Shown: piece by piece, positions 1 through 58,676 of the stretch | Numbering within the stretch: the stretch's first letter is position 1 | How the letters are laid out: each line of letters begins with the position of its first letter | Origin: Polytrichum commune | Lineage: Eukaryota > Streptophyta > Polytrichopsida > Polytrichales > Polytrichaceae | Direction: 5' to 3' | Assembly: GCA_950295325.1 (NCBI GenBank) | Contig: OX485808.1 | Coordinates: forward strand, 27,300,527-27,364,526 | DNA: 64,000 nt | Translations under genes and position numbers: made by a program | The notes under the pieces: model-generated | Told to the model about the DNA's origin: nothing | Database searches by the model: none | Seen by the model: the letters and a program-made list of their open reading frames with translations, nothing else

Positions 1-2139
1 TTTCCGACATCACTGTCGCGGGAGCCATCAGCACCGCGACGCACGGCTCCGGCGCCAGGAACGGCAACCTCGCGACGTCCGTATCGGCATTGCAATTCGT
101 CACCGCGAACGGCAAGGTAAGGTCACATAATCTTTTTCCTCATAACGAATTTCCATACATCACTTCTACTCACACTTTTGGCTACTTTGGCGCTGGTAAT
201 GGGGACAAATTTTCGTGGTGGTTTCGTATATATTACCATTACTTGAGACTTGTTCTAATTCTGTTTCAAGCTACTTCACAATTGTGATGATGTCGTGGAT
301 TAATAACATCTGTGAACCGCAAACGGCAAGGCAAGGTTTGGAGGTCGTGGGATATTCCATCACTCCTCACAGTTTTGGGTTTGGCGCCCTTAGTATGAAT
401 AGAATGTGTACAAATTGGTGGCGTTTTCTGTAATTACATTACTTAAGATTTGTTGCAGTGCAGGGATTCCATCATGCCCTACTAACAATTTTGGTGCTCG
501 TAGCAATACAATGTGAACAAATTGGTCCACAGCATAGCTTGAGTAGTGAACTTCTCTTTATGTTTTACGTCCATGTCGGCATTGCAATTCGTTTTGGTAC
601 TTTTGATTTTGGCGCTCATAGGGCGCTGATAGCAACAGAATGTGAACAAATTGGTGGCGTATTGGTGCATAACAGTACTTCGGCTGTGATGATGTCGTTA
701 GAATGTCTGCAAGCCGCAAACGGCAAGGCGAGGAGGTCGTGAGGAAACTCGATGACACATCCAGTTAATTTGGCTTATAGCAACAGAATATGAACGTCAC
801 TCTAAAAGTCGTGTGACGTTTTTGCGGTCATCAGCACCGCTTGCCTAGTGTTTTCTTTCTGTTTCACTCAGCTACTTCATCACAGCTGTGAAGATGCCCG
901 AATGTCAGTAGATTGCGATGACATCAACCGCGGAGCTAAAACCATCTCAAAGCCAGGTCGAAACTTGTGATTTGGTTCTGGAAATAATTCCATGGACATC
1001 GAAATTCCACTGCAAAAACCTTGAATATCATCATACAAGGGTTTCGCTGTGAAAAACTGTTGAAGAGAGAAAGATGACGCCAGCTGTAGGTTAGGTTGAC
1101 GGGAATGACAGACGCTTCACCTTTGATCAAAGCCGCAAACAAAGCCGCAAACTCAAATTTAAACCGGAGGCGGATTTCTACGAGCATGGCTGAGGGGCTA
1201 GGCCTACGGAGGTGGGTCAGTTTTGGGAGAAATTGTTGAAACTGTATATGTTTGTTGCAAAAGTTTCTCATGTGGTGTGTCCAGGTGGTGGAGTTTTCCC
1301 GTCGATCTCACGGGCACGACGAGTTTCCGGGCGTCGTGGTCGGGCTCGGAGCGATCGGCGTTCTCACCAAGATCACGCTGGATCTACAACCCGCATTCAC
1401 GGTGCGTCAATACGTGTACCAAAACCTGCCGCTCGCGAGCATCAAGAATCACTTCGAAACGATCATGACGCGAGCATACAGCGTGAGCGTGTTCACGACT
1501 TGGCAGAACCAGACAATCGAGCAGGTGTGGCTTAAGGTCCGGGATGGGGATAAAGACCATGAACCCTTTGACGGCCCAAAGGAGTTTTTCGGCGGGAAGC
1601 TCGCGACGAAGAATCTTCATCCCATCGGATTTATGTCGGCCGAGAATACCACCCAGCAGATGGGCGTCCCGGGGCCGTGGTACGACCGGTTGCCGCATTT
1701 CCGCGCGGGCCGAACCGCGAGCGTCGGCCACGAGCTCCAATCCGAGTACTTCGTCCCACGCGCCAAAGCCGTCGAGGCCATTCTGGCGATAGAGGAAACC
1801 CTACGCGACCAGATTGGCCCGCACCTGTATATCACGGAGATCCGGATGATCGCGGCGGACGAGTTGTGGATGAGCACCGCGTATCAGCGGGACAGCGTCA
1901 CGATCCATTTCACGTGGAAGCTGGAGTGGGAGGCCGTGCGTAAATTGTTGCCGCAAATCGAGAAAGTGCTCAAACCCTTCCACCCGCGCCCGCACTGGGG
2001 CAAGCTCTTCACCCTGTCGCCGTCGCGGGTGCAATCCTCGTACGAGAAGCTCGATGATTTCCGCCGCCTCGCTGCCAAGCATGATCCGACACACAAGTTC
2101 CGGAACGATTTCCTCAACACCAACGTCTTCTCTTCGTAG
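1..2139 (+). CDS. Alditol (xylitol) oxidase, bacterial type, 5' truncated by window edge
   Basis: A flavin-dependent oxidase that would convert alditols such as xylitol or sorbitol to aldoses with release of H2O2. Two exons are visible: 3-116 (38 codons) and 1285-2139 (284 codons plus stop), joined in phase 0 across a 1168-nt GT-AG intron. The first carries the FAD-domain motif ATHGSGARNGNLAT. The second carries GLGAIGVLTKITLDL, GVPGPWYDRLPHF and LQSEYFVP, then TEIRMIAADELW, IHFTWK and HWGKLF. In bacterial AldO these last segments supply the active-site Glu/Arg, His/Thr and Lys, and all are present here. The C-terminal DPTHKFRNDFL is also family-typical. The N-terminal part, about 80-100 residues with the flavin-linking His, lies before the window. 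The exons are much richer in G/C than the flanking DNA. Sugar-lactone oxidases (GULO/ALO type) are the nearest alternative, but the motif set fits alditol oxidase better. Confidence 0.88.
117..1284 (+). repeat. Alditol oxidase intron containing duplicated exon-end segments
   Basis: This intron runs from GTAAGG at 117 to CCAG at 1284. It contains copies of the preceding exon's end. TCGGCATTGCAATTCGT at 84-100 recurs exactly at 576-592. The exon terminus CCGCGAACGGCAAG at 103-116 recurs as CCGCAAACGGCAAG at 317-330 and 714-727. Intronic blocks recur too, for example the GTGAACAAATTGGT-like segments near 403, 512 and 642. This looks like two or three rounds of local duplication spanning the exon-intron junction, since diverged. 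No other gene is seen in it. Confidence 0.75.
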
Positions 2140-2254
2140 AAAGAAAGTGAGATTTTAAGATTACGACGACTCCGATGTTGGCGCCGGCATTAGCTATGCC
2201 GTTGCTTCATCGGGATGGGTTGTTAGTCCAAGTCTATTACGTAAAGTGGGTCTT

Positions 2255-2430
2255 AAATGGTTAACTTCTTCACACTAGCCCACTTCTTGTAGGACATGAA
2301 ACACGCAATTAGTGCAAGATGGATAGCGAATCCAAAATCGAGGCCATAGCCTCGTTCCACATGATTTCCGGAGCTCATATGAATATGTTCATCATCAAAG
2401 TGAAGATTCTCGTGCTCATTCTGTTCTGAT
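2255..2430. repeat. Dispersed repeat family D, partial copy
   Basis: The segment from ACTAGCCCACTTCTTG through CAAAGTGAAGATTCTCG recurs, diverged, at about 21540-21700 and 23680-23790. It occurs inverted at about 41600-41735 and 45430-45640. The family is non-coding. Its longer copies continue into a block with GACTATTGA...ATGGTTA (see 5815, 21285, 21725, 23795 and 54950). Termini were not resolved. Confidence 0.6.
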
Positions 2431-10340: not shown

Positions 10341-13300
10341 TCAAACAGCAGTTTTCAATGAATGTGAAGCCAATAATTGTTCTAAACTCGGAGGGGATGA
10401 TGGGGGCACAGCGCTCTCTACAAATGTAGTATTCTTTCCTACAGGCAATCCATTCTGTTCAGTGTGAGGTCCCCCAGGTTTGCTTGAAAATTCTAATGTT
10501 TTCGAGGCATCCAAGGCTGGTCCTCTCTCATTTGGTTTGTGAAGAGCATCTTGAGCTGCTCGCAATGCATCACTGAAAACTCCAGCCTCTCGCAATCCCT
10601 GCACAATTACCTGGACAAAGAAAAAAGATGTGACTTTTTTTTAAACTACAGGATGAATACTGAGGACATTGTGAGAGTGGATACTGTTTCAAGAATCTGG
10701 TCGAAGGGGCGAATTATCAAAATTGAGGTGACTTAAGATGAAATTTTTCAAAGATGTTGTTTACATTAGAGAAAATTTGTTACATACAGTTGAAAGCTAA
10801 TTTATCTAGACATAACAAAAACCCATATACAATATATAAAATTCCAACATTCATAAACAGTTCATGGAAAGGTATTATTTGATGGGATTATATCCCAAGG
10901 CTCAGAACTACAGTAGCTTATGTTCAACATAGTTTAAATATTTTAACAATCATTGTATACTCTGAAATGTACAATCATGTCTATGAACTATGTATGAGCA
11001 GTCAATAACAGCAAACGCCTCAGCATGTCACCTTAAAGCCCAGAATGGCCCTCTGGGACCTTTCAAGTATTAAACAGACAACTCATCTTTTGGCCAAGAG
11101 TTAATAAAACTATGTCTCAAGCAATTCCAATGAACTACTAATGCTCCACTATATATCATCTATTTCCTTGAACAATTTAATGTGCATTGCAATGGTGATG
11201 TGTAATAGTGTTGCAATGACAAACACTCACCTGAGGGGCATAAATACGTGTTAGCAGGCCTTTCCTCATCAGCTTCAAGTTCAGCTCTGAGTCTGTCCAC
11301 ACAACATGTTCCCTGTACCTGCAAGTCGCAATAATACAGTTTAAAAGACTACACAAAATATGATATTTAGTGTTTGCTTAGATTTAGTGTTTTACCACCC
11401 TACTCTGCTCAACACTAATTTTCAATTCTTTAATAATCAGTGTTAGACATAAATGCGGCGCCGCCGCCTTCCCTGTTGCCACCTCTTTCCTGTGAAACAA
11501 TCAATCGCCTTCCATGTTGCCACCTCTTTCCTACTAAACACTAAATTCGTGCATGTAACTTTCACATATACCATAGATGATATTTAGTGTTTGAGTTTAC
11601 ATTTAATGTTACTTACTTTCATAGGGTTAGTGATATTTAGTGTAGTGTTCGTATTTAGTGTATCTAACACTAAATATCATATTTAGTGTAGTGAGAAGAT
11701 AGGTAGGTAGTCATGTAGAATTAATATTAGTGTCCAGCCATTTTATTAGTCAGCAGTCAAAAGGGATTGAAAACAAGCACTAAAATTGACATTTGGGGTG
11801 CAAACATACCAGCGCTTCATCTCCTCTGGTGAAGCTGTTGATGCGATTATGAAAGCCTGGAGATAACAGAGCACATTTCAATTCAAAAAAACATGTGAAT
11901 CTTATGGTACAAAAAAAAACAAGACACAGCAAAAGCAAATAAAAGCCTCATAGGTATTTTGTACTCATCGTAAGGCATCAACTACAACACATCAACTAAA
12001 ATGAGAGGCCATTAGAGATATCCATGAAGTCTTCAGGCAGACCATGGGTGAGTTGGCTAAAAGGTGACATTGAGTGATTATGCAATAAGTCACCCAAGTT
12101 TTAATGAGGCTTAAATTAATATGCCAAAAGAGTGGAGTTGGGTTATGAAAAACCGGCTTTTCAGCTTGTCAAACTAGGATCCATGGGCCACGCTAGCCTT
12201 GCATAGGCCAACCCGGAATTTAATGTGACAGGTTCCCTCAAAAAACTTGTGGGTTGAAGTGGTACGCTTACCGCTCGATCAAACTCAAGCATGAAGCATC
12301 GCTTCACATCCTCTTTGGTAGGCTTACAATGACACCGATCACGCCGTGATGTCAAATCCGAAAACTTTGTGTAAGTGAAGTGTAATACCGCAGCCTCCTC
12401 GAACTTAATTTCACTGTCTCCAACAAGACACAAAAGTTACAAGAACTGATGTATCCTTTTACAATCATTGTAATGGACGGGTACTACCATTTCTGTGAAG
12501 AAGTTGAATATGAAACACTCAAATGGTAAAAAAAATTGCTCACTTTGGTGTTTTCATGTAATTGTGCCACCTATGAGCACCATTGGGTCTCAGGTTGTCT
12601 TGAATTCGAGCAGCAGCCTTTCCATTACCATAGGTCAGAAAATAGTTGGGGTTGCCACGTGTCGCTTCTCGATACATACCAAAATAGGTCTCCTTTGTGA
12701 CATGATCATAGTTCTTCTTGAACATGGTAACCTGTATCATCCAACCTATTCATGTGGCACCTTCTTTTATAGAATAAGTTACAATAAATCAAGGGTTGTG
12801 AGATTTTGAAGTGTCATGGTTGTGTTCGACCAACCTCTTTGAGGTCAGGTTGTCGCAAAATTGGGTAGACCATGAAACATTATCAATTGCATGCCATTTA
12901 AGACTCCATATAGGTAGAACTTCATCCATTGAACCTTCCTTGGTCACTTAGGCCCTACAGCTCTAGTGTAAAGTGAAGTGGGGCGTTCTCGGTATTTTCC
13001 ACCAATGAGAGATTTTAGAGTTCAATGGTCACAGGCCCTTAAGTTCTACTGTGAAGTGCCCCTTATAAGCTCCTCCAAGGACACAAAAAGAAAGTGACAA
13101 GAAATTACCTCACTAAAAGGATCCTCAATGTCCTCCCGCTCAATTGCACTTTCCTGCAAAAATATCCGCAATTATCAGTGACCTTGTCGCTTGTCCAGGT
13201 GCAGAATAGAAAAATGCAAATCTGAGTTGATAAAAGGAGGAACTCACATAATTGGGAAACACAACCATATCCACATCAGCAGCCACATCATGAAGCAAGC

Positions 13301-16300
13301 GTTGCAATGAATATTCTTGTGCTCCCGCAGGGTGCAACAACTCATCTGTGTCCAAATGGATGATCCAATCCATTCTTAACTCCTGTTGAAGGAAAATAAT
13401 TTTCAGAGGTAATTAATCCAAGTATGGAGCAACCACTAACTACAAGAAACATTGTACTGAACCAATCCACTGATGACAACTGGCACACATTCTAATGCAA
13501 TAAATAAAAGTCACCACATATGTATGCCACTTTGATTACAATGTTGAAAAACATCAGAGATTTTCAATTAACATTGTGAAATTGCATGAGTTTCACATTT
13601 TCATCTATTATGTGCCACATGATACCACTACAAAGCAAATTGATACATGAGATTAACATATATATATATATATGATATAATTTAATATACAACACCCTTT
13701 GGAAATTTGTGATGCACCCACCCTGAATCAAATACTTGGATTCCTTTGGCCAATTTTAGAACAACCAAGTGATACTAAGTAGCATTTGGTATCTTGTATC
13801 GGTATAGAGCTCACCCTTGCAAACACTATAGCCATTTCCATGTTAAGGGACTGTTTCACAAAGAGCTCGTAGTTGCATGGGCGAAAGAAGAAACCCGATA
13901 GCCAGGTCTCACCCCATATCCGGCTGCGACAGAGAAAAAATGCGTTATGCAAGCCACCCTACAAAATAGTGGTTTAAGGGATCTAAAGACTATTTGCATC
14001 CAGAAATTCAGAAAGTAAGTAATGAAGGTAAGATGGTTGCACCTTTTTGCTTGCTTCTCTTCAAGCTCTTTTGTGCGATGAATAACCTTCACGCCCTGTA
14101 AAGATCCAACCCCCATTATCGTTCTTGCATTATGGTCACAAATCAAAGAAAAAAATTCAATTAAAGTAATCAGATTGCCCTGGCACTTCCCTTCACAGGA
14201 TGACAGATGAAGCTGTGTCTAAATTTTTGTCATACATTTCCAACACCGATTACAAATAGAACATTGACATGAGCAAACATGCGGATGATCTTGAACAAAA
14301 AAAAAAGATAAAAATCACATACAGGAATAGCCTCCAGAACTGCTGTTGACTTGACAGATGCTGCTTGACCTTCCACAAATAAAATGTAATTCGTAACTCC
14401 GATTACTTGGTGGTAATACAACCATGGCAGGATCTGGTCCAGGCCAGCTGACGTGCTTGATGTGATAGCAATCTGTTGCATTTCCAGTCACGTCAAATCT
14501 GAGTTGCTAGAAAAAAGGAGTGTGCTTCAAAAATTTCATGTCCTTGTGAGTATCACTGTTCAAAAATCAACAAGTGCAGATAAAAGGTAACCGGTAAAAA
14601 GTAAAATAAGAATAGAGATATAGTTCATCTAAAGCCTTTAGAGATACTTACTAAACACAAGCAATCAAAAATGAGAATTAAAATAATACAAATCAGACAA
14701 ACTTCTACATCAGTTCCCACTTCAGGGTTTTGTCTTGTCAAAAACAGAAGCCAAAGTTGGGTTCACTCGAGAAAGCACCCTGTTTTATTCCTTCAAAAAG
14801 CTGATCCTGAGTGTGAAATTTCAGAGCCATTTCAAGACCATATGAAAGCAGTACACTGAAGTCTCTTTAAAAACCAAGACTGTCAGTGGCAAGAACTTAG
14901 AAACAGCATCATCATCACCCTTTGAAGAAATAGAAATATGGGAAAGGAGAGAAGTGCAAAACCCTGAAGTGGGAAAGCCAAAACCCTAAAGTTGGGTTTA
15001 CATGAGAAAACACCCTACTTTTTCCTCTTTTAAGTTTTTCTTTAAAAGTTAATCCTGTGTGCAACTTTAGAATCAATTCACAGTACCGCAGTCCACTGAA
15101 GTCTTGTCCAAAACCAAGAGTGCCAGTTGCAAGGGCAAAGTAACACCACCCATCGCCCTTTGAAGAAATCCACGTACGATCTAACTAACTAATAGATCAG
15201 ATGGTACAATTCCTGGAGGAATTTGACTTCATCAAACAGAACCAAGCCAAGCTAGGGATTCAATGAACCATCTTCAAACTAACTACCTAATGCAGCAGAA
15301 CTTATTTAAGAGAGTTTAAGAGAGGAAACAACGTATTTTAGTTCTTCAAAACCTATGCTTCATAAGCTTATCCTGTGTGAATTTTCAGAGCCATTTCAAG
15401 ACCAACTGAAAAGCAGCACACAGTGAAGCCTCATCAGAAACTAAGAGCGCCAGTCACAAGAACACAGTAACAGAAACAGCATCTGCGAACTAACTAACTA
15501 ACTAACTGATGCAGCAGATGGTACAATTTCTGAAGAAATTTGACATGATCAACAAAATAGGGTTTCAATGCACACGTTTGAAGAAATTCACAAACGAACA
15601 AACAAACAAACAAACTGATGCCACAGATGCTGCAATTCCTGGAGGAAATTGACCTATCAAAACAGAATAGGGATGCGCAAACAGATTAGGGATTCAATGC
15701 ACACCTTTGAAGAAAATAGCAAAATGAACTGACTGGGAACAGATAATACAATTCCTGGAGAAAGTTTGACTTGATCGAAACAGAATAGGGTATGGATTTG
15801 ATGCACAGCAGAACAGAGTTCCAATGCAAACCTTTGAAAATTTCTTGAACAAAACAAATTAACTTACTGATCCAACAGATGCTACAATTCCTGGAGGAAA
15901 TAGACTTGATCAAACCAGAACAGGGCATGGTTTCGATGCACAAACAATATGGGGTTTCGATGCAAAGCTTTGAAGGAAATCTGCGACCAATTGAACAAGC
16001 CGATGCAACAGATGCTACAATTCCTGGGCGAAATTTGACTTGATCAAAACAGAGTAGGCTAGGGTTTCAACGCACATTACCTTGGAACTAGTACCATTGC
16101 CAAGTGCATATTGCCATGCAGGGTGGTGTGGAAACAAGCCCACTTTTGGAAGCCGGTTTTTGGAGCAATCTGAAATTCGAGTGCCAGTGCGTCCACCCAA
16201 AGGAGTCAAGCTGTTGGAGTCGAGCTGCACACCCGGTAATCGTTGTGCATCACCAGACGCATCCCCGAGTCGTGCGGTTTCCACCAAGTCCCCTCCTCTC

Positions 16301-21870: not shown

Positions 21871-21906
21871 TAACACACAATTAGGCACATTTACCTCAAT
21901 GTACTA

Positions 21907-22682: not shown

Positions 22683-22726
22683 TACTTAAACCTCGTGATC
22701 CATTATTGGAGTCAACTGTCTGCCAA

Positions 22727-22925
22727 ATGTTTTGGGCATAATCAGTCAAAAGCATAGTGTTTCAAAGTCCAACCACTTAAATGTTGTTATCTTTACTGAT
22801 TTGAGGTGTGTTCCATACATTCCTTCGAGATCCATGCTTTCCCTGAAATCTTAAACTTCAACCGGTAATTTCTCAAACTCAACCGGTTCTTCTGTAACCT
22901 GCAGTCGGTTCTCCCGGTTCATTAA
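22727..22925. repeat. Dispersed repeat family E, copy 2
   Basis: It runs from TTTTGGGCATAATCAGTC to CAGTCGGTTCTCCCGG. It carries CAACCGGTAATTTCTCAAAC, matching the copies at 7395 and 45095. It lies just downstream of the membrane-protein gene's 3' end. Confidence 0.65.
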
Positions 22926-23306
22926 TTGGAGTGCCACAGCTGACTGTTGACAACGATGAATACATTCATCTAAACATTCACCCATCCTTGATAAATTGAA
23001 TGACTCACACAGCACTGAGATGACTAAAGTGGGACAATGCCACTGCAGCTGTAAGAAGATCTACTGCTGGAAAAATTGACACCTCTATATGTTTTCTGGA
23101 AAACTTTGTACACAACCACCCTCGGACTTTCTCTATTCAAGGTTACAAAGTACAAGCCATGTCTACAAGCACACAACTAATCTACAGTTGATCTTTGAAC
23201 AACACGTGTGTAGATCGATCTCAAAAAGGAATCAAAACCAACTTCGATTTTTAGTTTCGAGAGCTGATGGGAACTGTGGGTTGGGTGAGAAGAACGTTCA
23301 CGGCAA

Positions 23307-26300
23307 TCAATGGCTTGCAAGCTGTTTCTCCAGTTCAGCCCTGCGTCTATGCACCTCCTGCAACACGGAAACAATTTCAAGTAAAATGGCAAGTACATGA
23401 CATTATTCAGCTAGGTGGGGCCGCAAATAAGCCAGATTCTATTCAGAATTATACACTGTTAATTCACACAGCAGAGCACTGCACTGCTCTGGCAGATTCA
23501 GGCTGAAAAACTACTCAGGTGCAGCAGTGCGCTGATATTATTAGAATGAAACAGCTGATAACAGTAAAGTATAAGGTTGATATTATTAGAATGAAACGGC
23601 TTATAGCAGTAAAGTATAAGGTTAGATAAATCTTGAATGGTTAAATTTTTTGCTGGTTAGCTTACTTCTCCTGGATATGGTAACACTCTTATTAGTATGA
23701 GATGGGTAGTAAATCTAAATTGCCACCATAGCCTACTTCCTCATAAATTTTGGAGCTCAATGTGAAGATTGTTGTGTTTATTTAGAGGTCATATATGTTG
23801 ACTATTGACCCTAAAATGGTTAACATATGAGAGCATGTTGTCCAATCTCTTCTAACACATAATACCTTTTTGGTGTCCATTCTTCAACACACACATAACC
23901 ATACATACCTCAAATATAGTTGTCCATTTAAGATAAGTAACCAAATTAGGATTAGGCACATCTACCTTATGTGAGCAAAGGTATAAGTGATCATTTTGTC
24001 CATCACAACACAACACAATGCAATTCATACTATACTATCTCACTATTTTGATCAAAATATGTGGCAGTGCATGTTTCGAAAACTCATAGAAAAAGTAACT
24101 TTTGATCGTTTTTTTTTCAGGCAGTGGCTACAAAGTGTGCAGTCAACAAGGACAAAGAAACCCCAGACTTTGTAATGACATGTCCGCCAAAATTCAATAC
24201 AACCTAATAGACTCGAAACTCCATAACATCAACCTCCTTAATGTCACTCCTTTTCTAATGTCCCAAAACCCCGAAACCCAAGGGAACGGATGTTCTCAGT
24301 TTAAATCTCACCCCTTGTTGTCACCTTCCCTCCCATATATCACGGATTTTGACATTAAAATAAACCACCAAAGAATTCAAACCAAATGCTTGCACACTTT
24401 ACATTGTCATTAATGCAATGTTGCACTTCATGTTATTCCACACTGTCAACATACTACACTAATTCTCTTTTATAACGCATCCATGTTAACACTACAGAAC
24501 TCCTTAATATCATGTGCACTTTGGTTTCCACGAGAGTGGTATTACGGAGTTTGGAGTGTAGTTTGAAACAGGAAATATAAACATAATAGGAAACATAGTA
24601 CTGGTGTCAAACGGCATCTTTGTGCATTTTATAATCTGCGGCAATTATTAAATTCATACTCTCTCTTTCACAAAAATAGTCAGGGAGAAGGCAGTCTATA
24701 CCTCGAGGTCTTTCTGGGCTTGTTGGCGCCAATTCACCTGTTTCATATGACTACGCTTTACATTGCCGATGCATAGCAAACCCTGCAAAAGAGGTTCCAC
24801 AATATATTTAGTGCAAGTAGAATAAATTGTCCGTTATCCTACTAAACCACACAAATACACTACATAAGCAGGTCAAATGGGTTCATCCCAACATAAGTGA
24901 TATCAAACTCTCCTAGGAATTTTTCTCTCAGAATTTGGAGAAAGACATTGATTGTTGCATAACCAACTAAAAGAATGACCTGCTCAAATCACAGCTTGAC
25001 AAAAATCAGCAACTTTGCTTGCCAACAAAGTCAATACACTACCCACTGAGAATATGTACTTATTTCAGAACAAAAATGTGCATTCTCCTCTGCACTACAA
25101 AGCTATAACAGCAGGGAACAGAGAAAGATAAAATGGCAACTTTACACAGCTCTGCCAAAGTGTACAGTTATCTGGCCTAGCACCTTCTGATTGTAGACAC
25201 AGAACTTTACAAAGGAAAAAACACAATGACCACCTCAGAAGGTTTTTTGAGGTGAAATTTTCACTTGATGTAGAAAATAGTCCAGTGATTGTGGCTAGTT
25301 TGATTTGTCCTGGAAAAGTCACATTGTCGTGACGAATCCAGAGCCTTCAAGAAAGTGGAAAGAAAACTCACCGCTACAATATAGAGGATTCCACAAGCAA
25401 AGAGCCACCAGCTGGCTATTTCATGCAACAAACCCTCAGCTCTGGTCTCCCCGCTTGCTCTCGCCAGCACTTTCGTCATTGCTGCCACCCTGGAGACCCA
25501 AGTTTGTATCACCACTTCAAGCTCTTCCTTGTTTAAGTAAGGCAGTGAAAGATTAGAAACAGAGTATGGGATATAATTAATTTTCAGATTACAATAATTC
25601 TTATGCGTAGCAACATATAGTTCTTTTTGAACCAAGCCTGGAACAAGGTCATCAAACCAAGAAAAGGTGCACCCGACACAGGTTGTATGGACATGAGAGA
25701 ACTTACAAAATTTGGAGAGCACCACGACCTACCCAGTACTCCAACACCTGCACAGAATTTCTAGTGTCAATTGTGTTCCAACCTTAATACCCATTTGAAC
25801 TACCATCAAAAGACAAGCCCACAGAAACCAATTCAATGATTTATAACCACCACCACAGTGGTAGAAAACTGCATTTCAATGTGGAGGTGAAAGCAATGTA
25901 ATCCATGCAGTCCTGAATTTTAAGTAAATGCTTACACATAATTGCCAAAAACAATAAAATTGCACTAGTGCCAGAACCATTAATAAATGATCCAGCATAT
26001 ATGACTACCACCATACAAAGTGCCACGAGAAATAACATTCCGCAGTCACACATACCCTCCAAAACTTGAAGATAGGCTCCCATTCAGTCTCCGCGATGGT
26101 TACTAGAAAGGCAAAGGCAACGGTGTACACACGCACAATGCCAACAAAAACCTGCCACAAGAATAAAAGATCAACCGTCAGAAGAAACCCTACCAGGAGC
26201 TTTTCCTTCATGGTCATCGGTTTTATAATCAGTTTAAAACCCACATCTTATCATTGCCATGCCGTCAAATTCATTTCCACACTGCTAGAAAGCCTCAAAA

Positions 26301-27708
26301 ACCACAGTGAAATATATCACATTCTCTGTTTATAACCCCGACCCGCCACTGAGCAACTGAGATTGCCCACTTGAGAGAGAGAGAGAGAGAGAGATATAGA
26401 GAGTAAGTAGGTATGGAGCGAAAATAAGAAGAGGTTCAATCCTGTGGGTTATCTTTCTTCCAACAAAAAAATGCGAAAGTTGCATCCCCCAACCCATCAT
26501 TGCGCTGTTCTCGAATTCAGTGACACACTTTCAGAAAGCCTCAAAAATCACAGTGAAACATTGCACATGCAGTGGATGTTGATTTTGTAAACCCAAGGTC
26601 ACTGAGCAACAGAGATTGCCCTTGAGGAGAGGTTCAATTTGCGAAGTTCTCCTTCTTCCAAGAAAAACATGCGACGTTTGTTTGTATCAAGGTGTCCATG
26701 TAAATACTCAAGAAATTATGCAGGCAGGAATAACCCAAATTTCAGAACAAAGTGTGCTCCTATGCTGATCCTTCGTGCAATCCATATCTACTTATTCGGA
26801 CTTGATATTTCGAACTGGCAGTCAAGAGAGAAAGGGAAAGAAATCTGCAAGAGCGTCCTTCTGGGAATCCATACCTACTTATTTCGGGGCTTGAGAGTAA
26901 GTAGCCATGGAGTGAAGATAAGAGAGGTTCAGTCCTGTGGGTTATCTCCTCTCTCTTCCAACAAAAACAAGCAATGTTTGTTTGTTTGTTTCAAACTGGC
27001 AGTCGAGAGAAAGAGAAAGAAATCTGCAAGAGTGTGCGTTGGGCAATCCATACCCACTTATTCAAAACTTCAGGGTAAGTAGCCATAGAGTGAGGATAAT
27101 AAAGAGAGGTGTAATCCTGTGGGTGATCTTTCTTCCAACGAAGAAACATGCAACAGAGATTGCCCACTTGCGAGAGTAAGTAGCCATGGAGTGAAGATAA
27201 AGCGAGGTTCAGTCCCTTGGGTATCCTTGGGGTATCGCATCTCTCTTCCAACAAAAACATGCATAATTCGTTTGTTTGTTTCAAATTGGCAGTGAAGAAA
27301 GGAAGAGAAAGAAATCTGCAAGAGAAAGAGAAAGAGAGTGAAATCTGCACATACACTGACGCGGTAGTCGAAGCCCCGGTAGTCGAAAGAACGAAGAAGC
27401 GAGATGAGGTTAACCACCATGCACAGCAAGGCGCCAACAGCAGTGACGATGCTCAACACAGCACACACATACAACAACGTGTCCCTCTCTCTTCCCGGAG
27501 GTGCATTCTCCAACACAGGTGGATGACGAAGCGCATCAGCTTCTTCCTCCATCAAAGGTGCCTCCAAATCATCATCCCGACTCATTTGTCCGCCAGCCAT
27601 GGCAGGAGGAGGAGGAGGAGGAGGAGGAGGATGAGGAGGCTCTGCCACTTCTCCCTTATGCGCTATATCCCTCTCCCTTAAATCTTCAAACATATCCTTG
27701 TCCCCCAT
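23307..27708 (-). CDS. Small multi-pass membrane protein, TVP15/COPI-associated-like
   Basis: Predicted 246 residues. Exons: 27708-27355, 26151-26056, 25747-25707, 25489-25372, 24782-24702 and 23357-23307 (stop TGA), all GT-AG and in phase. The N-terminal ~75 residues are cytosolic-looking, with a run of nine prolines encoded by a GGA-type repeat (27605-27630) and the acidic DDDLEAPLMEEEAD. Hydrophobic segments follow: LLYVCAVLSIVTAVGALLCM, then VFVGIVRVYTVAFAFLVTIA, then WWLFACGILYIVAGLLCIGN. Between them are ETEWEPIFKFWRVLEYWVGR and a GALQIL loop. The E(T/F)xW and W..RG pattern recalls the Golgi TVP15/COPI-associated family, a tentative link from memory. The tail is basic and coiled-coil-like (EVHRRRAELEKQLASH). 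The exon 1 end holds a direct repeat, TTCGACTACCG twice. Gene structure is firm; function is not. Confidence 0.72.
24210..24558. mobile_element. MITE family B, copy 2, in intron
   Basis: A 349-bp element with TIRs GACTCGAAACTCCATAACATC and, from the right on the other strand, CACTCCAAACTCCGTAATACC, flanked by TA. It is the inverted counterpart of 18079-18432 over its whole length, for example CTCAGTTTAAATCTCACCCC. It sits inside the last intron of the membrane-protein gene. Confidence 0.82.
26390..27354 (-). repeat. Tandem repeats in intron 1 of the membrane-protein gene, reaching the splice donor
   Basis: Four or five diverged units. On the plus strand they carry GTAAGTAGCCATGGAGTGAAG, GAGGTTCAGTCCTGTGGG and TCTTCCAACAAAAACATGC. 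Each then continues into TTTGTTTGTTTCAAACTGGC and GAAAGAAATCTGCAAGAG. On the gene strand the last block (TGCAGATTTC...TTTCTC) starts only six bases inside the intron, directly after the donor GTATGTGCAG. A (GA)n run lies at about 26372-26390. Confidence 0.75.
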
Positions 27709-29921
27709 TTCCCTTGGAATACAGCAATCCCCTCAACAAACTATGCAACAGGATCGATGCAAAAGTTAGGGGTTGGAAACTTCACCCCCACTTCACATAA
27801 AAAGGACCGGTTCAGCTCACTCCAACAAACGTATTCAATCGAAGAAGAAGAAGAAGAAGAAGAGTTCATCAACCCCCAAATCCCAAATTTTCGTTGCCGG
27901 CCTTCTTCCCAGAATACTAAACTGCAACCTCGGTCTTGTTGTTGTTGAGGACTGAGTTTGGATTCCTGCTGCGCTGTTCTCAAGGTCGATGTGTCATCAC
28001 CAAGCTAACCCCTGGCACCACGTCACAAATATCATGTGCTCAAATAATGAGGAAGTTATTGTATGTCCTTATTAAGTAGAGGTTTTTTCACAGTCACTGT
28101 ACTGATGTGCGGTAAAGGTAAGTAACAATTTGTTTGAGCTGATGAGATACAATTTTTTTGTCATTTTCGAAGGAAGGATTTGGAGCTTTAAGCTTACTGC
28201 TGAATGCAGGATAAGTGGGTTCAAATCCTCCATTGCTGGCAGCTTCCACTTGGCGCCTCCTGGAGCTCCACGTAGATGGCGGACATCAACGTGGCGGACC
28301 ATCCTGCATGCATTCCGTAGTTTCTTTCCTTTTCCCCCCCAATTTTGGCCGCTTCTGACGTGGATAAGTTGCAACTTACACCATGTAGGTAAAGTAGGCA
28401 GAGCTTTGTCCAGGTGCTTCAACTAGGTAAGTAGTATGGTAATAATAAACCCTAAATCACTTGAGCAAAAGTGAGAGAATCCTCCAAATTCATATTCTTT
28501 GACAGAAAAATCTGTTGTAAGTTATGGCAATGGTTCCTGTCCTGCAGACTTGAAATTGAAATGCATGGAATAAGGTTAAGGACAGTGCGACAGCTTCTCT
28601 GTATATTTGCACACAATTCCCAAGTTATTGAATGTTTTTCTATATGTCTTGAAGAGAATGGTAATCTGATATTAATCAGCAACTACTGAACACTTCACAT
28701 TTAACTACTGCACTGAATTAAGTGTTCTACATATCAGTACTGGTGTACCCTATATAACTTGTGCGAAAGTGAAAGAATTCTTTAAATTCAGCTTCATTTT
28801 GACAACCAGATTCACAGTAAAATGATTCCCTTGCAAATGAGAAATTGAAATGTATGGGAATGGTACATAAGGATAGAATCACAGCTTATTGGCTCTATGT
28901 TATTTGACACTGTTTATTGGCACGTTATCTCTAAGTCAGTAGAAGTTTGGTGTGTTGCAAATTGTCTGCACAGAAGGCAGGCGTTTGAAAATTGCAGTCA
29001 ACTGATTCTAATCAGCAGTTATTGCACGCTTGTGTTTCAGTGGATTAGCATCTCTTTCACCATTTCAGTGAAAATACTCAAACCTCAATGCCATGGAAGT
29101 TACTCGACAGCAATGGAGGCGTGAGATAATTACCAGTGTTGATCTGTATATAGATGAATGCATGTTATCAATAATCAACATCAATACCATGGTATCAATG
29201 AACTTACCTGTGGGTATCAGTATTGTAATACCAATCAAATGTAGATTTTTGACGGGTATGTCAAATTGAGGGAATCTTTATATACCTAAGTTATTATGTG
29301 GATCAATACCACTCTACACTGAGACTAGCGCAATTTCGCCTAGGTATGAACCTCCTTAGTATGGTATATCCACCCAAATGGTATTGAAAACAGAAACAAA
29401 ATACCATCAAAGATCTATACTATACTGGTATCAGTATATGTGAAATCCTCATTATAGATACCCAAATGGTATCACAAAAAGATGACAGGGTTGGGATTTA
29501 TGGCGTCTATGTAAACTCATCCATAGTGGATAAGGAGCTTTAGTAAAAAAGTCCCATACAAATGTGGAAAGGCCAATACATTCTAACAAGACCCTGCTAG
29601 ATTAATTCAGAGTCTCTGATGCCATTTCCGGAGCCTAATACTCTAAAAATAGTCCTTATGGCTATAAATTGTTCGCTGCGATCCACATTCCTAATGGATG
29701 AGTTTACAAAGACACCACGAATCCTAGCCAAGAGAATATAAGACCAACACTGGTAATTACTTGTGCTGTTAGAGACGTCAGATATATACACACATAAGAT
29801 GCAACCAGTTTTGAGCATTACAATAAATTATTGCAAGGTTGCCATATAGCAAGCTGACAGTTTTTTCATGGCATCCACACAACCTCTGCTTGTCTGGAAT
29901 TCACTACTTTGAAATAAAAAT
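27709..29921. other. Intergenic spacer between membrane-protein and aminopeptidase genes
   Basis: The part next to 27708 should be the membrane-protein promoter and 5' UTR, with a (GAA)n run at 27841-27863. A diverged tandem duplication of about 300 bp covers roughly 28450-28700 and 28755-29030 (GAGCAAAAGTGAGAGAATCC versus GCGAAAGTGAAAGAATTC; TTAATCAGCAACTACTG versus CTAATCAGCAGTTATTG). 29140-29480 has many GGTATCA/AATACC words. The bases before 29922 are the aminopeptidase 3' UTR. Confidence 0.55.
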
Positions 29922-32900
29922 TCAAGGCTCATCAACTGTAAGCTGCGCATCGAGAGCAGAAAACTCCTCAAAGAAAGCCTTGAAGTGGTTGTATGAGTAT
30001 CCAACATCATCCACTCCACACATTTCTCGGATGCTATGCATCGACAATTGAGGTGCCCCAACATCGACTGTGCGGATGCCAATCCCGCTGGCCAAGATTG
30101 GGCCTATTGTAGAACCACATTGCATATCATTTCTCACCACGAAATCCTGTGCGAAACAAGGAATCAAAGAGTGAGAGGCTATAAATCCATTGACCTAAAT
30201 CACTTCAGATTCAAAATATATCTGTTCTTCACAACACAAAAGTTGCATGTTAGGAGAAACAAGAGATATAAGAGACAGCCCAGCTCTGTGTAAAGATATG
30301 GGATAGATAAGAAAGAGAAACACCTGCTTAATCATATGATCAAGCTGTTATGGTTATTATGATCATTTGGCAACATATTACATACCAATTTGTTTCTTCA
30401 AGGACATTTAAATTCATGAAACCCCTAAGTAATTTGCAAGCAAAGTGATACTTTCTTGCTTGATGTAACCAGTTCCCACCTGCGCAACCAAGGAGTTGAT
30501 GGAATCATCAAACCATCAACTTGATGTGACTAATACGATAATTTGGAAAGGTGATGGACACAGGTACCTGAGTGGGAAGGCCTCGCATTTTTCCTATCTC
30601 TCGGAACTTAAATGAGGTGATTGCATTGGTAGCATAGCGCTGGTTGGCATTTTGTTTGATCACGAGTCCTTTGTGCATCTTGGGTTGATGAAATTCCTCA
30701 TGCTTGTCCTGTATTATAGATTTTTTTTTAAATATGCCACATCAGAAGGGAACTTGAAGTATTGAAGGGTAATATCATATGATCAATCAGAATTAGAGCT
30801 TAATACTCACTGAATACATCAACATGCTATACCACATTATCTCAAATCTGATTGCTGGTTTTATAGCTAAGTCCTAGTAACTGAGAAGTCTCTACTTCAA
30901 AAGAAATATTTATAGAAAGTCATCAATTAAGAGGATGGTGCATTGAGACACACCGGGTAGTTGGGGTGCAAACTATGGGCCATGTCTGCAGAAACCAAAA
31001 AGCTTGCCTGAACAGCTCTCTCCAAAAGCCCCTGACATTACATCCATTACGCACAATTGAATAAGCATCATCCAGATCTTAACTTATTCTGGACTTCTTC
31101 AGGCATGAAAGAGAGATTATTTGTGAGAGTTATTCTTTAAGTCAATAAGACTTTTCTTCAGGAGTTGGGTCACCTACAATTTTCCATTGGTTGATTTGTA
31201 TACAAAATCAATAATTCATTTCCACTTGTAGTACATCCTTGGAGATGGTGTTTAATTTTGAATGAAGAGCAATGTATGGGGACCAAACCCATCTTAGCAC
31301 CAATACAGACTCTCAAGAAACCAATATAGAATGTTCTTCATTCCAACCTCCACACTACCTCCAAACATGCACCAAAAAACTTATCAAATATGGCAGGTGT
31401 TGCATGCAAAACAACCAACTAATGACCAGAAGTTATGGTGAGTTAAAGCATTACTCTAATATGTGAATGCCATATTGTCCATAAGATTGTTCCAGGAATT
31501 CTGCAAACTAACCTAGCAGATTGGAAACCTGATCAAAGCTCCATATCATACAAAGTTCTATAATTGGCTAATACGAAAGCCTTGCCCATTATAGCACCTC
31601 CTAATCATTCTCATTGTGATGATCAGCATATGTTCTTCAAGTGGGCAAGATAGCCAAAGTGGTGATTAAAATTGTAGTGAAGTAACTATTGCCATTACTA
31701 TATAAAGTACAATTTGGACAGGTTTCAACAATCATCCCAAGTACGTAAAATTGTTTAGAAAGTTTGAGCAACATTGTTCTAGAATTTGGAGAGGAATTGG
31801 CAAAAAATGATGAGTTTTCAACAGAATATCCTTAAATAAAGATTCGACTCAAGGAATTGGCAAAATTTTGGCAAGTCTAAATACATTGGTGATGATGTAT
31901 ACCTTTTCCGAAGCGTCTCCAAAGTGAGATGTAATACGCCTCAAGGCATCAATGAGAACAGGTGATCCAGCACCTTGTGCTGAGTCAGACCCAACTTCTT
32001 CATGGTCAAACAGGGCCACCATGCGGATTCCTGTCTCCTCACCCAAATTTGATGATGCATCTATTAATGCCTGAATTACCCAGGACACATGACATAAATG
32101 AGATTAATGTAAATGTAACAACGTTGAACCACTTAGTGTGGCAGGGTACATGTTCTAGCAATGAATATATTAAATAGGCCCAACACACAAAAGATAAGAT
32201 GTGACAATTGTCCTATCTCTGCACTTTATAGTATTTCTCTCTATTACTCCTCTTCACCTTTAAAGAACAGAAAGAGCTGCATAGGTTGTCAAGACGGCCT
32301 GAGAAGATGAACTCCTTGAGAGCACCACCAATGACGCTGGGTTGGGTATCACAAACTTGCAGTTCAAAATCACAAATTTCTTCAGGATTGCATGCCAGCT
32401 CTTCAGACAACAACTGCTCCATCAAACCACCACATCCAACCCAGGAAATAATCAAATTGTGCAGGCTTATCAGATAACTCTAATATCTGTTACAGTATTG
32501 AGAACCTGATCACTCCATAATCAGCTCGTGCAAACTTATGGCAGTTGAACACCCCAACCTCATGCATAAAGTCACCCGAGTTTTATTATGGCTTACATTA
32601 ACATGCTAAAAGAGTGGGGGCCGGGTTATAAAAAGTTGGCTTTCTAGCTTGCCTTGCTAGGATTGGTGGGCCAAACTAGCCTTGCATAGGCCAAGCCAGG
32701 ATTTAGGGTGGCAGGTCCCATGCATCAGACCCTATTTTGGATCCTGAAGTTCTCTCAATTTTTTGGGGATTGAAAGTGGAGGTCCAAGGAGATTGACCCA
32801 TGTTTCAAAATCGGGCTCTGACACAAGACACTCTAACGAGCTCTTAATGGAAAATTCTTCAAACAGGCACCAAACTCCTTGTTTGGAGTTTGGTGCCTCT

Positions 32901-35900
32901 TTGAAGGACTTTGCAGATAACTCTACTGAACTACCAACAAACTACCAACAAACTTTCCATTTCCAATGAGGCTGACATAAACAACGAGTATAGTCCACTC
33001 ATGACATCCAGAATAGATATGTGCTGTTCTTTGCTAAGTATTCAGACAGGTAGAGAAAAGATTCACGACTTTAAGTTTACTTAATTATCCATCCACTTCT
33101 GTGAGGTTGCCAGCTGAGGCAGCCTCTACATTAGAGCCCATCGAAGAATCAGAGCTACATTGATACAAAAATGAATCCATGAACAAACTAATGCAACTGT
33201 CTTCAGAATAAACAGAAGTTGAGATTTGTAAATACCTGCAATAGGAGGGGATGATGGTAAGCAACATCTGTATTTTGTGCACCTGCTGGCTTGCTTTCAG
33301 AAGGTGAGGCTCCTTCAGCCACCTTCATATCAGCTCCGCCCTTGGCATCAGCAGGCTTGTTCACTTCAGCCTGTCAATCACTCTCCCACATTGCCCATTA
33401 AAAACATAACAAAAAGATTGAAGTTGTCAAAAAAAATTGCCTTAACTGTGACAAAGAACTACTACTGTCATTGGTTTCAGATACAAATCCACATGCCCCT
33501 AAGGTGGCAGAAACAACATGAAAGCTCGTAGGTTTCTTTTCACAAACCCATATACATTGAGCTCAAAGATAAGCCCACTCCCCTTACTAAGTTGGCACCC
33601 TCCACCTACATCTGATCAATCAGAATGTGCTCAGATGGAGGTTCCAGCAGTCCTAATATGTAGTGTCTCTGTTTTTAGTTTCACTAATAACCTGCTTAAT
33701 CAATCTACTTTTTCATGAGAGGCCAATAACTGAATTGGTGAGGATTTCAGGAGCTGGACCTCACTTTGATAATTGAAGCCAGAACAGGTGCAAGATGTGT
33801 CTGTGTGTTAACCTTGAACCCATCAGCATTTCTGCAACCACAAGCCCGTCACTCAATATATTGCTCCTTAGTACAACATTTAGGACGTCAGGTATGCCAC
33901 AGGGGGGTGTCAAGATATTGTAAGTATCGTTGCCTGTAAGAGTGTCAAGGTGCAGTTACACACAACAACCATTTTGCAGTTGATGGTTGTGGTCTACATT
34001 CCTTGGCTCTATTTTGCTTGTACTTACTATGTGGCACCATGAGAGAACTTCAATGCCGAAGCATGGGAGAGGCAATTACTCTTAGACAACCTTTCTACTA
34101 GAATCCATAAATTGATTTCTTCACTACAAGAATTGCACCAATAGGAGGGACAATCTATGAGGTCAAATGCACTCGTCAACTACAAGAGTAGGTGTGTGTA
34201 CACCAAAAAAAAGTAAAATTTTATATTAAATCATAGTTGTGGTTGAAATTGGGCCCAAACCACAACTCAACTCACCTACAAAAAGTCATTGGGGCAATAA
34301 TGTGATGTCAATGTAATCAACTGAAGCAAGAGATGAAAGCATAGAAGATTTTTAGTACCTGTCTAGGTGAATAGCCAATGTTGGTATCCGCATAATTGGT
34401 TGTTGGATCCAAACAAGCTCATGAGAATAAGCACCTTTATCTCCTGTTGCAGGTTTGCACTTGAGCACCACCCGTCCTGCAACCGTCAGGTCCCGATCAA
34501 ACCAAGTGTGCCACAAACCACCTCCATATGGGGATACACCAACCTCCAAGAAGCCTGACTTTGTCACCTGCTCATTGCACGCAACACATCTCACAATCCT
34601 CCAATTCCAAATCCAAAATCATACGCTTCACTTGACCAAACTGGGTCCAGATTTCAGTACAAAACAAAAGAGTTATCCTTTAACTTAATGGGACATTTTG
34701 TCGAAAGTTGGTCCCCTATGATTTTTCATTGGTTGGTTTGCATACAATATCAATAATTTCTTTCCACTTGTGGTGCATGCTCAATGGTAGTGTTCGAATT
34801 TGAGTGAAGAGCAACCTATTTCAGATCATAAAGGGCCAAACTCAGTTTAGCACCTCTTAGTATGCCAAATGAGTTCGACCCTCAATGAACCAATATAGAA
34901 TGCTCTTTGTTGAATCTGCCACACTACCTTCAAGCGTGTCACTGAAACTTATCAAACATGGAAGGCGTTGTATGCAAAACAACAACTCCCGACCAAAAGT
35001 CATGTTAAGTTAGTGCATAACTCTAATACAGCTGAAAATCACTTGTTCCACTCAAACCTCCCAGTCAGATTAGCTTGTGAGAACACTTTGATGAGGAGAT
35101 GATGAAAACACCTTTGAGACAGGTTTTAGTTTTGGGCATGGACTGTCTGTGTGAGCACCTATGATGAGAAAGCCATTTCCAGGAGTGTACCTGCACAAAA
35201 ACGGCAATCCGGTATGAACCTTCTTGTGGTTCTCTGGCTCAAAGGCACTCTTTAACTCCGGTAGACATTTTGCTTGCACTTCAAGCTTTTCTAGCAACAG
35301 AAGAGAGATCTTGACCTTGACAAATGATTTGATATAGAGATGATCAAGGTTTATTAGCAAGGAACCCATATGAGAGGCAGTTTCGTCCATCCTACAATTG
35401 AGATAGGGAATGTATCGGATCATCAATTGGAAGACATAATTTAGGAGAATAAAGGCACACATTTTCTAGAACAACTCATTGAAGTGACAAAGTGTACATG
35501 AATCTTTCCTACTCTGGAACAATCTGATCATACACCTTAAAAAAACTTGCAGCATGAGAACAGCCGCAAACAAAATGTGAAAAATAACATTTCATACTTC
35601 GTGAGGTAAAAGTAGTGCACTAAATAGTGTATTTATTGTCACCAATTCTATTTGTCTTGCTCAATACTAATTGTAAACTGCCCATGTAGTGTCTTAATAC
35701 TACATGTAAACCTAACATTATTTGTCATTCCTTGTAATTATAGATCTACAACTTTGCACTGTCACTCACTGTAGCAAGATTAAGTTCAGATTAACTTACT
35801 TTTTACCAACTGCAAAAGCAACAATGGTGGAAAAATTGCGTGTAAAAAAGTATTTTCCCCCTGCTTCCAAGGTCCACTCTGCCCTCTCTGATAATTGCAC

Positions 35901-37487
35901 ATAGCCCACCTTCTGTAGTCTACATTTTGCTTCGTCTGTGTGCACAAAAGTAAATCACCAGTTACCTCACCTCAAACATGCATCTTTCAGTTTCATGCAA
36001 ATTTCAGACATCTATCATGTCCATGCCTTGTAAACAAAATGTAGACAATCACAATGAAGATTAACAGTTACTGAGCCTCTCCCTAACATTTCTCTCCTGG
36101 TGAAAAAATCATCCTCAAGTGCAACTAAACACCACAAAAAACATGTTACAGTTGTTCAAAGAGGGTTTGAAATATCAAAACGAAGTGCAGGATACTGAAA
36201 CCAGACAAGCTGCCTAGAATATTATTACAACCCAGTCTAGAACATGTTAAGCTCAAGGATGCAAACATTCAATGCTGATCACAATCAAATTTCTTTCATA
36301 GAAGTTTGTTCATAAAAGAGTGTCTCAGAAATTAACTCTACCAGCAATTGAGTCCCACCTACCATTTCAGCTTGAAGGAAATTCATCACCATGTATATTA
36401 GCACAACCAATTCACTACCCACATCAATGTCAAAACTCATTCTGTTCTCCAAGGCAATCTGAAACTCAACTCAAATTCCTCAACTCACATTTACATTCAA
36501 CTGAGGCTCTCCCACTGAGTTACTAACACTGCCATCTTCTCATTACTAAAGCTTACGCATAAGCAATCGTCAGCACACAGTGCAATAGGCCGTCACAGTG
36601 TACACTGCAACACAATTCGGCTACAAACATCAATGTCAAACTCGTTTTATTCTCAAAGGCAACCTGAATACTCAACTCAAAATCCTCAACTCACAATCAA
36701 CTGAGGCTCTACCACCGAGCTACTAACACTGCCATCTTCTCATAACTAAGCTCACGCATATGCAATCATCAGCACAGAGTACAAAAGGCCGTCAGAATGT
36801 ACACTGGCACACACAAATTGCTACCAACGTGAACGTCAAATTCTACTCCCCAAGGCAATCTGGAAACTCAATTCATAATCATCAAACTCACATTCCAAAG
36901 AGGCTCTCCCACTGAGCTACAACACCTCCATCAGTATCGTACACAATGGCGTATAAACCCTGAACCCATATTTTCCACACACACCACCCATCACCAAAAT
37001 ACTTTAACACAACGGATTAAGCCCAGCTAATTAATTACAACTTCGTCACAATGCATACATACTAACACACCGAATATGCTCCCAACATCAATGGCATAAT
37101 CACAATCCAAAATCCTCAACTGACATTAAACTGAGGCAGCACTCCCAATGAGCTACTTACGCATATGCAATCGTCAGCAAACAGAACAACAGGCCGTATC
37201 AAAAGTTCAAGCCAAATCCAATGCCACATTCTCCACATCACCACCCCATCGCCATGACAATGCATCCAACGGATTCCTTCTTCATAATTGTGAGAGAGCC
37301 AATTAGGATCCAAAACATTCATCCCATACTTCAATCTCCTCAGCTCGCAACCACCTAATTCTCTGGAACCTAAAGAAACAAATGTGGGGACGGAATTGAG
37401 ACGATCGAGGGACGTACGGACGGCATGGAAAGGGGTGGGGGATGCGTTGAGGAAATCCACAAGCTCCTGCGCTACGGTGTCCGCCAT
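29922..37487 (-). CDS. DAP1: Aspartyl aminopeptidase (M18), one-base frame break in exon 6
   Basis: A zinc metallopeptidase that removes N-terminal Asp/Glu from peptides in the cytosol. Exons: 37487-37392 (or to 37161), 35912-35800, 35190-35112, 34567-34359, 33831-33765, 33371-33236, 32413-32258, 32070-31903, 31031-30954, 30708-30568 and 30146-29922. Metal and catalytic motifs are all present: GAHTDSPCPKLKP (His), SGRLDNLCSSF (Asp), ALFDHEEVGSDSAQGAGSP (Glu-Glu), SADMAHSLHPNYP (Asp) and SMHSIREMC (His). KYFFTRNFSTIVAFAVG and GGGLWHTWFDRDLTVAGRV are family-typical. The start MADTVAQELVDFLNASPTPF matches family N-termini; an in-frame ATG seven codons upstream (37508) is less likely. Two problems remain. 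The end of exon 1 is unclear, and exon 6 has one base too many (see findings), so function of this allele is uncertain. Confidence 0.9.
31150..31460. repeat. Dispersed repeat in aminopeptidase intron, copy 1
   Basis: About 310 bp, including TTTTCCATTGGTTGATTTG, ACCAATATAGAATGTTCTT, CTTATCAAATATGGCAGG and GTTGCATGCAAAACAAC. It is matched in the same orientation by 34690-35030 in another intron of the same gene. It is non-coding with no TIR detected. Confidence 0.65.
32572..32720. repeat. Dispersed repeat, second copy of the 12105 element
   Basis: CACCCGAGTTTTATTATGG through GGCAGGTCCCATG, with GCCTTGCATAGGCCAA in common with 12105-12250. It lies in an aminopeptidase intron. Confidence 0.6.
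34690..35030. repeat. Dispersed repeat in aminopeptidase intron, copy 2
   Basis: Diverged copy of 31150-31460: TTTTTCATTGGTTGGTTTG, ACCAATATAGAATGCTCTT, CTTATCAAACATGGAAGG. It carries small extra segments. It could be an intragenic segmental copy or two insertions of one element. Confidence 0.65.
36360..37170 (-). repeat. Tandem repeats (period near 200 bp) overlapping the end of the aminopeptidase first open frame
   Basis: About four diverged units. On the gene strand each has ACGGCCT...TGCTGACGATTGC(A/T)TATGC, a GT donor, then GCCTCAGTT...GAGTTGAGGATTTTG. Donor-like sites are GTAAGT (G at 37160), GTGAGC (G at 36755) and GTAAGC (G at 36556), spaced 405 and 199 bp. A degenerate unit lies between the first two. 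The array lies in the intron between the N-terminal exon and the exon at 35912. Confidence 0.82.

Positions 37488-58629: not shown

Positions 58630-58676
<47 letters not shown>

What the first reader, a model, noticed from the sequence alone, without database searches (positions are those of the whole stretch)
1..37170. Four neighbouring genes each have exon-end or splice-donor sequence repeated within the following intron
In the alditol oxidase (117-1284), glycosyltransferase (15190-16080), membrane-protein gene (26390-27354) and aminopeptidase (36360-37170), the first visible intron starts with diverged tandem or near-tandem copies of sequence at or next to the exon-intron junction. In the oxidase and aminopeptidase the copied unit includes exon sequence. 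The four units are unrelated to each other, so this is not one transposon family. It points to a recurrent local process, such as replication slippage or template switching at the start of transcribed regions, that multiplies candidate 5' splice sites. Both transcription directions are represented.
Basis: partly seen in the sequence, partly recalled or inferred. Interest (0 to 1): 0.72.

Follow-up and report, generated by a model that had tools for sequence, protein, structure and literature searches.

The report
Tandem arrays confined to first introns
In this stretch of what looks like plant DNA, old tandem duplications sit almost only in the first introns of four unrelated neighbouring genes; they seldom copy exon ends and do not multiply splice sites, so the surprise is where local duplication accumulates, not splicing.

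Summary
Local direct repeats in this window are concentrated in four introns: the oxidase intron 117-1284 and the first coding introns of a KOBITO1-like glycosyltransferase, a small membrane protein and an M18 aminopeptidase. These hold 2791 of 3345 local-repeat bases, a density of 0.51 against 0.0095 elsewhere; 0 of 400 shifts of the intervals by 2 kb or more reached that (maximum 1145). At that threshold 0 of 19 later introns hold any. Units are unrelated between genes and not dispersed in the window. The oxidase array is by far the weakest.

Exon-end copying is clear only in the oxidase (0 of 300 shuffles as high). The aminopeptidase exon end was misplaced: its donor is at 37417 and its array starts 221 bp inside the intron. 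Donor-like sites do not exceed shuffles.

Best reading: repeated plant-type small tandem duplication by break repair, accumulating or surviving mainly in promoter-proximal introns. Whether this holds genome-wide could not be tested: no genome is held.

The parts
117..1284 (+). Oxidase (alditol/xylitol-oxidase-like) first visible intron, with short diverged copies of exon end and intron start
   Evidence: Exon joint ANGK|VVEFS aligns to bacterial oxidases with no gap at the joint; self-hits
26..116 (+). Oxidase exon stretch with copies inside the intron: exon -42..-17 at 567-592, exon -15..+7 at 316-337, exon -14..-1 at 714-727, and a 12-base match of exon -91..-80 at 829-840
   Evidence: best exon-intron score 42 against a 300-shuffle maximum of 26; the two shortest matches are weak on their own (E=0.053 and 0.015)
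14473..16080 (-). First coding intron of the KOBITO1-like glycosyltransferase gene (1608 bp)
   Evidence: Exon joint [13 protein letters not shown] with CAG acceptor; gene name recalled
14753..16076 (-). Tandem array in that intron: units of about 90-136 bp at 15486-16076 plus a second set at 14753-15483; first matched base is intron +5
26152..27360 (-). First coding intron of the small membrane-protein (COPI-associated-like) gene (1209 bp); donor at 27360 or 27354
   Evidence: Exon joint FDYR|VFVGIVR; PF08507 E=0.00065, below its cut-off
26250..27324 (-). Tandem array in that intron (spacings of about 180, 250 and 290 bp)
35936..37417 (-).
36391..37197 (-). Tandem array in that intron (units of about 200 bp, 4 partial copies), starting 221 bp after the donor; wholly intronic
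37418..37487 (-). Exon 1 (coding part) of the aminopeptidase (MADTVAQELVDFLNASPTPFHAV)

Best explanation
These are independent, old local tandem arrays. Each seems to have arisen by repeated small tandem duplication of the sequence lying in a promoter-proximal intron. The likely route is the plant pathway in which two nearby nicks or a staggered break are filled in and joined, giving a head-to-tail copy; an existing repeat then allows more copies by unequal pairing. A duplication that starts in the exon (oxidase) is tolerated because the upstream donor is still used and the extra exon end is spliced out. The concentration in first introns would reflect more breaks in open, transcribed 5' chromatin, or longer survival there because transposon insertions are rarer. 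Shown: the arrays, their concentration within this window, their independence, their divergence. Inferred: break repair as the source, and the reason for the 5' bias.
For: Density of local direct repeats is 0.51 in the four introns and 0.0095 in the rest at E<=1e-3; 0.47 and 0.003 at E<=1e-6; 0 of 400 circular shifts of 2 kb or more reach the observed value. 0 of 20000 random placements reach the observed sum, and 3 of 20000 give at least 150 bases in all four. 0 of 19 later introns placed hold a local repeat at window-level E<=1e-3 (regions listed), although five of them are 609-883 bp long. The units are unrelated between genes and not dispersed in the window; no Pfam domain in 6 of 6 ORFs overlapping the arrays or the aminopeptidase intron; no Rfam family. 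The best pair of 60 bp or more is 73-84% alike in each of the four. Of 13 far direct pairs over 60 bits none touches a first intron, while four of their members lie in later introns. [quoted passage not shown] nearby nicks or breaks with 3' overhangs produce them (PMC8355091, passages).
Against: Many units or spacings here (about 90-300 bp) exceed the size where the rice paper finds such duplications most common: their share declines beyond 125 bp, from 70% to 5% by 200 bp. No pair of 60 bp or more exceeds 84.3% identity, so nothing shows the process acting now (some shorter pairs reach 85-100%). GC skew of the sense strand is inconsistent (0.10, 0.04, -0.04, 0.36), so an R-loop cause has no support. 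The oxidase signal is much weaker (174 bases at E<=1e-3, 0 at E<=1e-6). In the looser per-intron test 3 of 19 later introns show weak hits, and one (glycosyltransferase intron 9) is covered to the same fraction, 0.26, as the oxidase intron. Only four introns in one window; later-intron borders are approximate.
Confidence: 0.5

Rival explanations
1. Ordinary minisatellites that by chance happen to lie in these four introns; no 5' bias exists in the genome.
For: Only one window, and the finding comes from a reader who noticed the pattern; the oxidase signal is weak and one later intron reaches the same covered fraction in the loose test.
Against: 0 of 400 distant shifts and 0 of 20000 random placements; 4 of 4 against 0 of 19 introns at window-level E<=1e-3, 1 in 8855 by hand count, or 1 in 1540 with only the three proven first coding introns.
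Confidence: 0.22
2. The arrays are kept by selection: repeated enhancer-like or intron-mediated-enhancement elements in first introns.
For: First introns of plants are known sites of enhancement (PMC8157754, passages); the arrays persist although diverged.
Against: The TTNGATYTG motif is not concentrated in the units: exact matches 1 in the four first introns (outside the array, at aminopeptidase +197) and 2 in 19 later ones; with up to one mismatch 18 in 5467 bp and 18 in 7875 bp. No unusual RNA fold in 10 stretches (z from -1.1 to 1.5). Other motifs were not searched for.
Confidence: 0.13
3. Survival bias: tandem duplications form everywhere, but elsewhere they are broken up by transposons and deletions, so only first introns keep them.
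For: Dispersed repeats lie in later introns and intergenic DNA but not in the four first introns.
Against: 15 of 19 later introns hold no member of the 13 far pairs and still have no local repeat at window-level E<=1e-3.
Confidence: 0.1
4. One reading: slippage or template switching at the exon-intron junction that multiplies 5' splice sites.
For: Oxidase exon-end copies are real. The glycosyltransferase array starts at +5 and its unit borders read TTCAAAG against exon TTCCAAG (6 of 7 matches to TTCAAAG occur at 0.27% of window positions, but the register was chosen after looking). Sense donor-like sites are slightly denser than antisense or later-intron ones at score >=2.5.
Against: 3 of 4 exons are not significantly copied; the aminopeptidase junction was misplaced; donor-like sites do not exceed shuffles.
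Confidence: 0.04
5. Four separate transposon families, or, for the oxidase, an intron gained by duplication of an AGGT exon segment.
For: The oxidase resembles bacterial enzymes, so its intron may be young.
Against: No dispersed copies in the window. By my reading of the AGGT model the start of the following exon and the end of the preceding one should be found at the ends of the intron; the first 150 bp of the following exon score 21 against the intron (17 of 200 shuffles as high) and the preceding exon scores 13 against the last 250 bp of the intron (159 of 200). Age could have erased such copies.
Confidence: 0.01

Closest known systems
Small tandem duplications in plants from repair of nearby nicks or breaks (rice; PMC7971508, passages only; its references 17 and 20 were not held)
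   Same: Head-to-tail local copies of unique sequence, no transposon, unit differs at each site
   Different: Here units are often longer, reiterated to several partial copies, old, and concentrated in first introns; the rice passages that I saw mention no first-intron bias
Minisatellites and tandem arrays in introns (e.g. C. elegans, PMC4039745, passages)
   Same: Tandem repeats inside introns; that paper also reports a 609-base array found in one gene only (frm-1)
   Different: Its main element (CeRep25B) is one multi-copy family linked to alternative splicing; here each of four neighbouring genes has its own unit, in the first intron
[quoted passage not shown] potato RdRp, PMC4974935, passages)
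   Same: Oxidase: exon sequence duplicated into the intron
   Different: The following exon is not detectably copied; in the other three genes the exon is not significantly copied

Membership tests
Plant break-repair tandem duplication | Direct, adjacent or near-adjacent copies of local sequence | tested here: met
Plant break-repair tandem duplication | Typical length up to about 125-200 bp | tested here: inconclusive
   Units about 90-136 bp in the glycosyltransferase, about 200 bp in the aminopeptidase, spacings 179-292 bp for the longest pairs in the membrane protein; size decline from PMC7971508
Plant break-repair tandem duplication | Ancestral single-copy state in relatives | not testable with these tools
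   No genome held for the window and no plant genome collection among the tools
Transposon families | Dispersed copies | tested here: not met
   within the window only
Transposon families | Coding hallmarks | tested here: not met
   No Pfam match in 6 of 6 ORFs overlapping the arrays or first intron
Transposon families | Terminal inverted repeats or target-site duplications at array ends | not tested
   Inverted repeats were sought only upstream of the three - strand genes
Intron gain by AGGT duplication (oxidase) | Exon copies at the two ends of the intron, following exon included | tested here: not met
   (mononucleotide shuffles, 200); decay with age could hide them
Intron gain by AGGT duplication (oxidase) | Intronless ancestor | not tested
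   Only bacterial relatives were seen
Structured intronic RNA cluster | Known RNA family or unusually stable fold | tested here: not met
   whole window, 0 matches; 10 stretches

The most novel reading that the evidence does not exclude
In this lineage the promoter-proximal intron of most genes is a hot spot of local tandem duplication: first introns grow by tandem duplication while later introns grow by transposon insertion, so intron position decides the kind of mutation that builds the intron.
Probability: 0.35. Interest if true: 0.75.

Novelty: new variant of a known kind. Interest (0 to 1): 0.45.

Why it matters
First introns tend to be longer than later ones (in Arabidopsis a mean of 260 against 161 bp, PMC8157754, passage). 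A genome where first introns hold local duplications and later introns hold dispersed repeats would show that position along the transcription unit sets the mutational input, or the survival, of intron DNA. This is directly testable by computation on any assembled genome, and young duplications would separate mutation from survival.

Tried and rejected
Tried without result: whole-genome search (no genome held); Rfam on the window and tRNA scan (nothing; one U6atac match in the glycosyltransferase intron, E=0.22, below its cut-off); Pfam on 10 further long ORFs (0 of 10; one search listed 140 ORFs of 75 codons or more, so other genes in the window are not excluded); RNA folding of 10 stretches; enhancement motif count; GC skew as a sign of R-loops (inconsistent).

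Searches looked for first-intron tandem repeats or duplications and listed 3, 0, 3, 0, 3, 12 of 32, 1 and 12 of 999 papers. By titles, opening lines of abstracts and the passages read from PMC8157754 and PMC4039745, none reports this pattern; the library lacks most subscription journals, so absence from print is not shown. Searches (9 of 9 listed; 8 of 13 listed) covered intron gain and break-repair duplications. All papers cited were seen as passages only.

The pair 37707-38039 belongs to a foldback element and 21288-21848 to a dispersed repeat; both were kept in the counts of bases outside first introns.

Limits: borders of the 19 later introns were set by eye; the assumed start of 9 of the 23 introns has no GT in place, so those borders are off by some bases. 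At least one aminopeptidase intron and the end of the membrane-protein gene were left out because exons were not placed. One search looked at direct pairs only; one search covered both strands for the four first introns, with low-complexity masking. The donor matrix, the plant homologues used to place exons, the organism of 4dyo, and the names KOBITO1 and land plant are recalled; the oxidase, M18, weak COPI_assoc and weak glycosyltransferase matches come.
Full report
WHAT IS THERE. The window carries spliced genes and no genome is held for it. I placed four genes by protein homology. The oxidase on the + strand matches bacterial-type alditol/xylitol oxidases (PDB 8ot8, 2vfr), with its visible exon ending at 116 and the next starting at 1285. 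On the - strand are a glycosyltransferase with ten introns placed (KOBITO1-like by recall; Pfam Glyco_tranf_2_4 E=3.8e-05, below its cut-off), a small membrane protein (Pfam COPI_assoc E=0.00065, below its cut-off), and an M18 aspartyl aminopeptidase (E=7.3e-77 for joined later exons; for the first exons). Land-plant origin is my inference.

THE REPEATS. A self-comparison of the whole window, direct orientation, gave 74 pairs at E<=1e-3. Those with spacing under 3 kb lie in the four introns, apart from three groups: a dispersed repeat at 21288-23967, a weak pair at 28449-28804, and a pair at 37707-38039 in a foldback element. With spacing under 1.5 kb, 2791 of 3345 covered bases lie in the four introns: 174, 1145, 840 and 632 in order of position. 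At E<=1e-6 the rest of the window keeps 178 bases, equal in number to the two 89-nt copies of the foldback element, but the oxidase then keeps none.

IS IT CHANCE? Sliding the four intervals by 2 kb or more, 400 shifts, never gave more than 1145 bases against 2791. A finer series of 639 shifts that included small ones gave a maximum of 2789. Random placement reached the observed sum in 0 of 20000, and gave at least 150 bases in all four in 3 of 20000. Of 23 introns placed, 4 of 4 first (or first visible) and 0 of 19 later introns carry local repeats at window-level E<=1e-3. In the looser per-intron test, 3 of 19 later introns show hits of 26-37 bits against 45-279 in the first introns; glycosyltransferase intron 9 is then covered to 0.26 of its length, the same fraction as the oxidase intron, so the oxidase alone would not stand out. 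Length alone does not explain the other three: five later introns are 609-883 bp long and have 0, 0, 0, 0 and 28 covered bases.

WHERE THE ARRAYS START. Relative to the donor: oxidase about -42 (exon included), glycosyltransferase +5, membrane protein +12 (or +6, as the donor is ambiguous between 27360 and 27354), aminopeptidase +221. Exon against own intron is significant only in the oxidase, with 0 of 300 shuffles as high; the others gave 229, 21 and 284 of 300. In the glycosyltransferase the unit borders read TTCAAAGG where the exon reads TTCCAAGG, a hint that the unit once reached about 8 bases into the exon; 6 of 7 matches to TTCAAAG occur at 0.27% of window positions, though I chose the register after looking.

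THE AMINOPEPTIDASE CORRECTION. My joined protein aligns to aspartyl aminopeptidase 4dyo without a gap through SPTPFHAV-HEAKCRLQKVGY. If the stretch 37156-37417 is tested as though it were exon, it is copied (score 59, 0 of 300), which explains the impression. The donor TCC|GTACGT is weak, so a cDNA check is worthwhile.

SPLICE SITES. With a recalled plant donor matrix, sense donor-like sites in the four introns number 22, 13 and 3 at cut-offs 1.5, 2.5 and 3.5, against 27.6, 14.8 and 7.5 in mononucleotide shuffles; later introns give 25, 13 and 6 against 33.8, 17.6 and 8.9. Two oxidase exon copies have lost the donor GT. The GTAAGT repeated in the membrane-protein intron is antisense.

WHAT KIND OF THING. 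The units are unrelated between genes and not dispersed here, without a protein domain (0 of 6 ORFs), known RNA or unusual fold. The most similar pair of 60 bp or more is 73, 84, 84 and 81% identical in the four introns, in order of position, so the arrays look old; some shorter pairs are closer (85-100%). Later introns contain dispersed repeats (12080-12236 with 32562-32719; 31126-31461 with 34669-35028); none of the 13 far direct pairs over 60 bits touches a first intron. This contrast is the most interesting feature.

MECHANISM. [quoted passage not shown] Small tandem duplications form by fill-in at breaks with 3' overhangs (mouse cells, PMC8355091, passages). That known process could explain the arrays. 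It does not by itself explain the first-intron bias, which I attribute, by inference, to more breaks or better survival in promoter-proximal transcribed DNA. Sense GC skew is inconsistent among the four, so an R-loop cause is unsupported.

VERDICT. Its generality is unknown.

Noticed in passing
window 37707-38428: Foldback element with 292-nt arms (88% complementary) and a 93% identical 89-nt direct repeat, just upstream of the aminopeptidase gene.
   Followed up: partly
window 62836-64000, - strand: DDE transposase ORF (Pfam DDE_1, E=1.1e-22 for 62836-63705; no Pfam match for 63656-64000).
   Followed up: partly
window 12080-12236 and 32562-32719; 31126-31461 and 34669-35028: Dispersed repeats in later introns of the glycosyltransferase and aminopeptidase genes.
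   Followed up: partly
window 27361-27387, - strand: The end of membrane-protein exon 1 carries a small in-frame duplication, FDYRGFDYR.
   Followed up: no
window 1-2138: The oxidase resembles bacterial enzymes (49-55% identity to three bacterial loci) yet has an intron: a possible transferred gene that gained or kept an intron.
   Followed up: partly
window 58001-60000: Very A+T-rich stretch (24% G+C) with TA-rich short tandem repeats.
   Followed up: no
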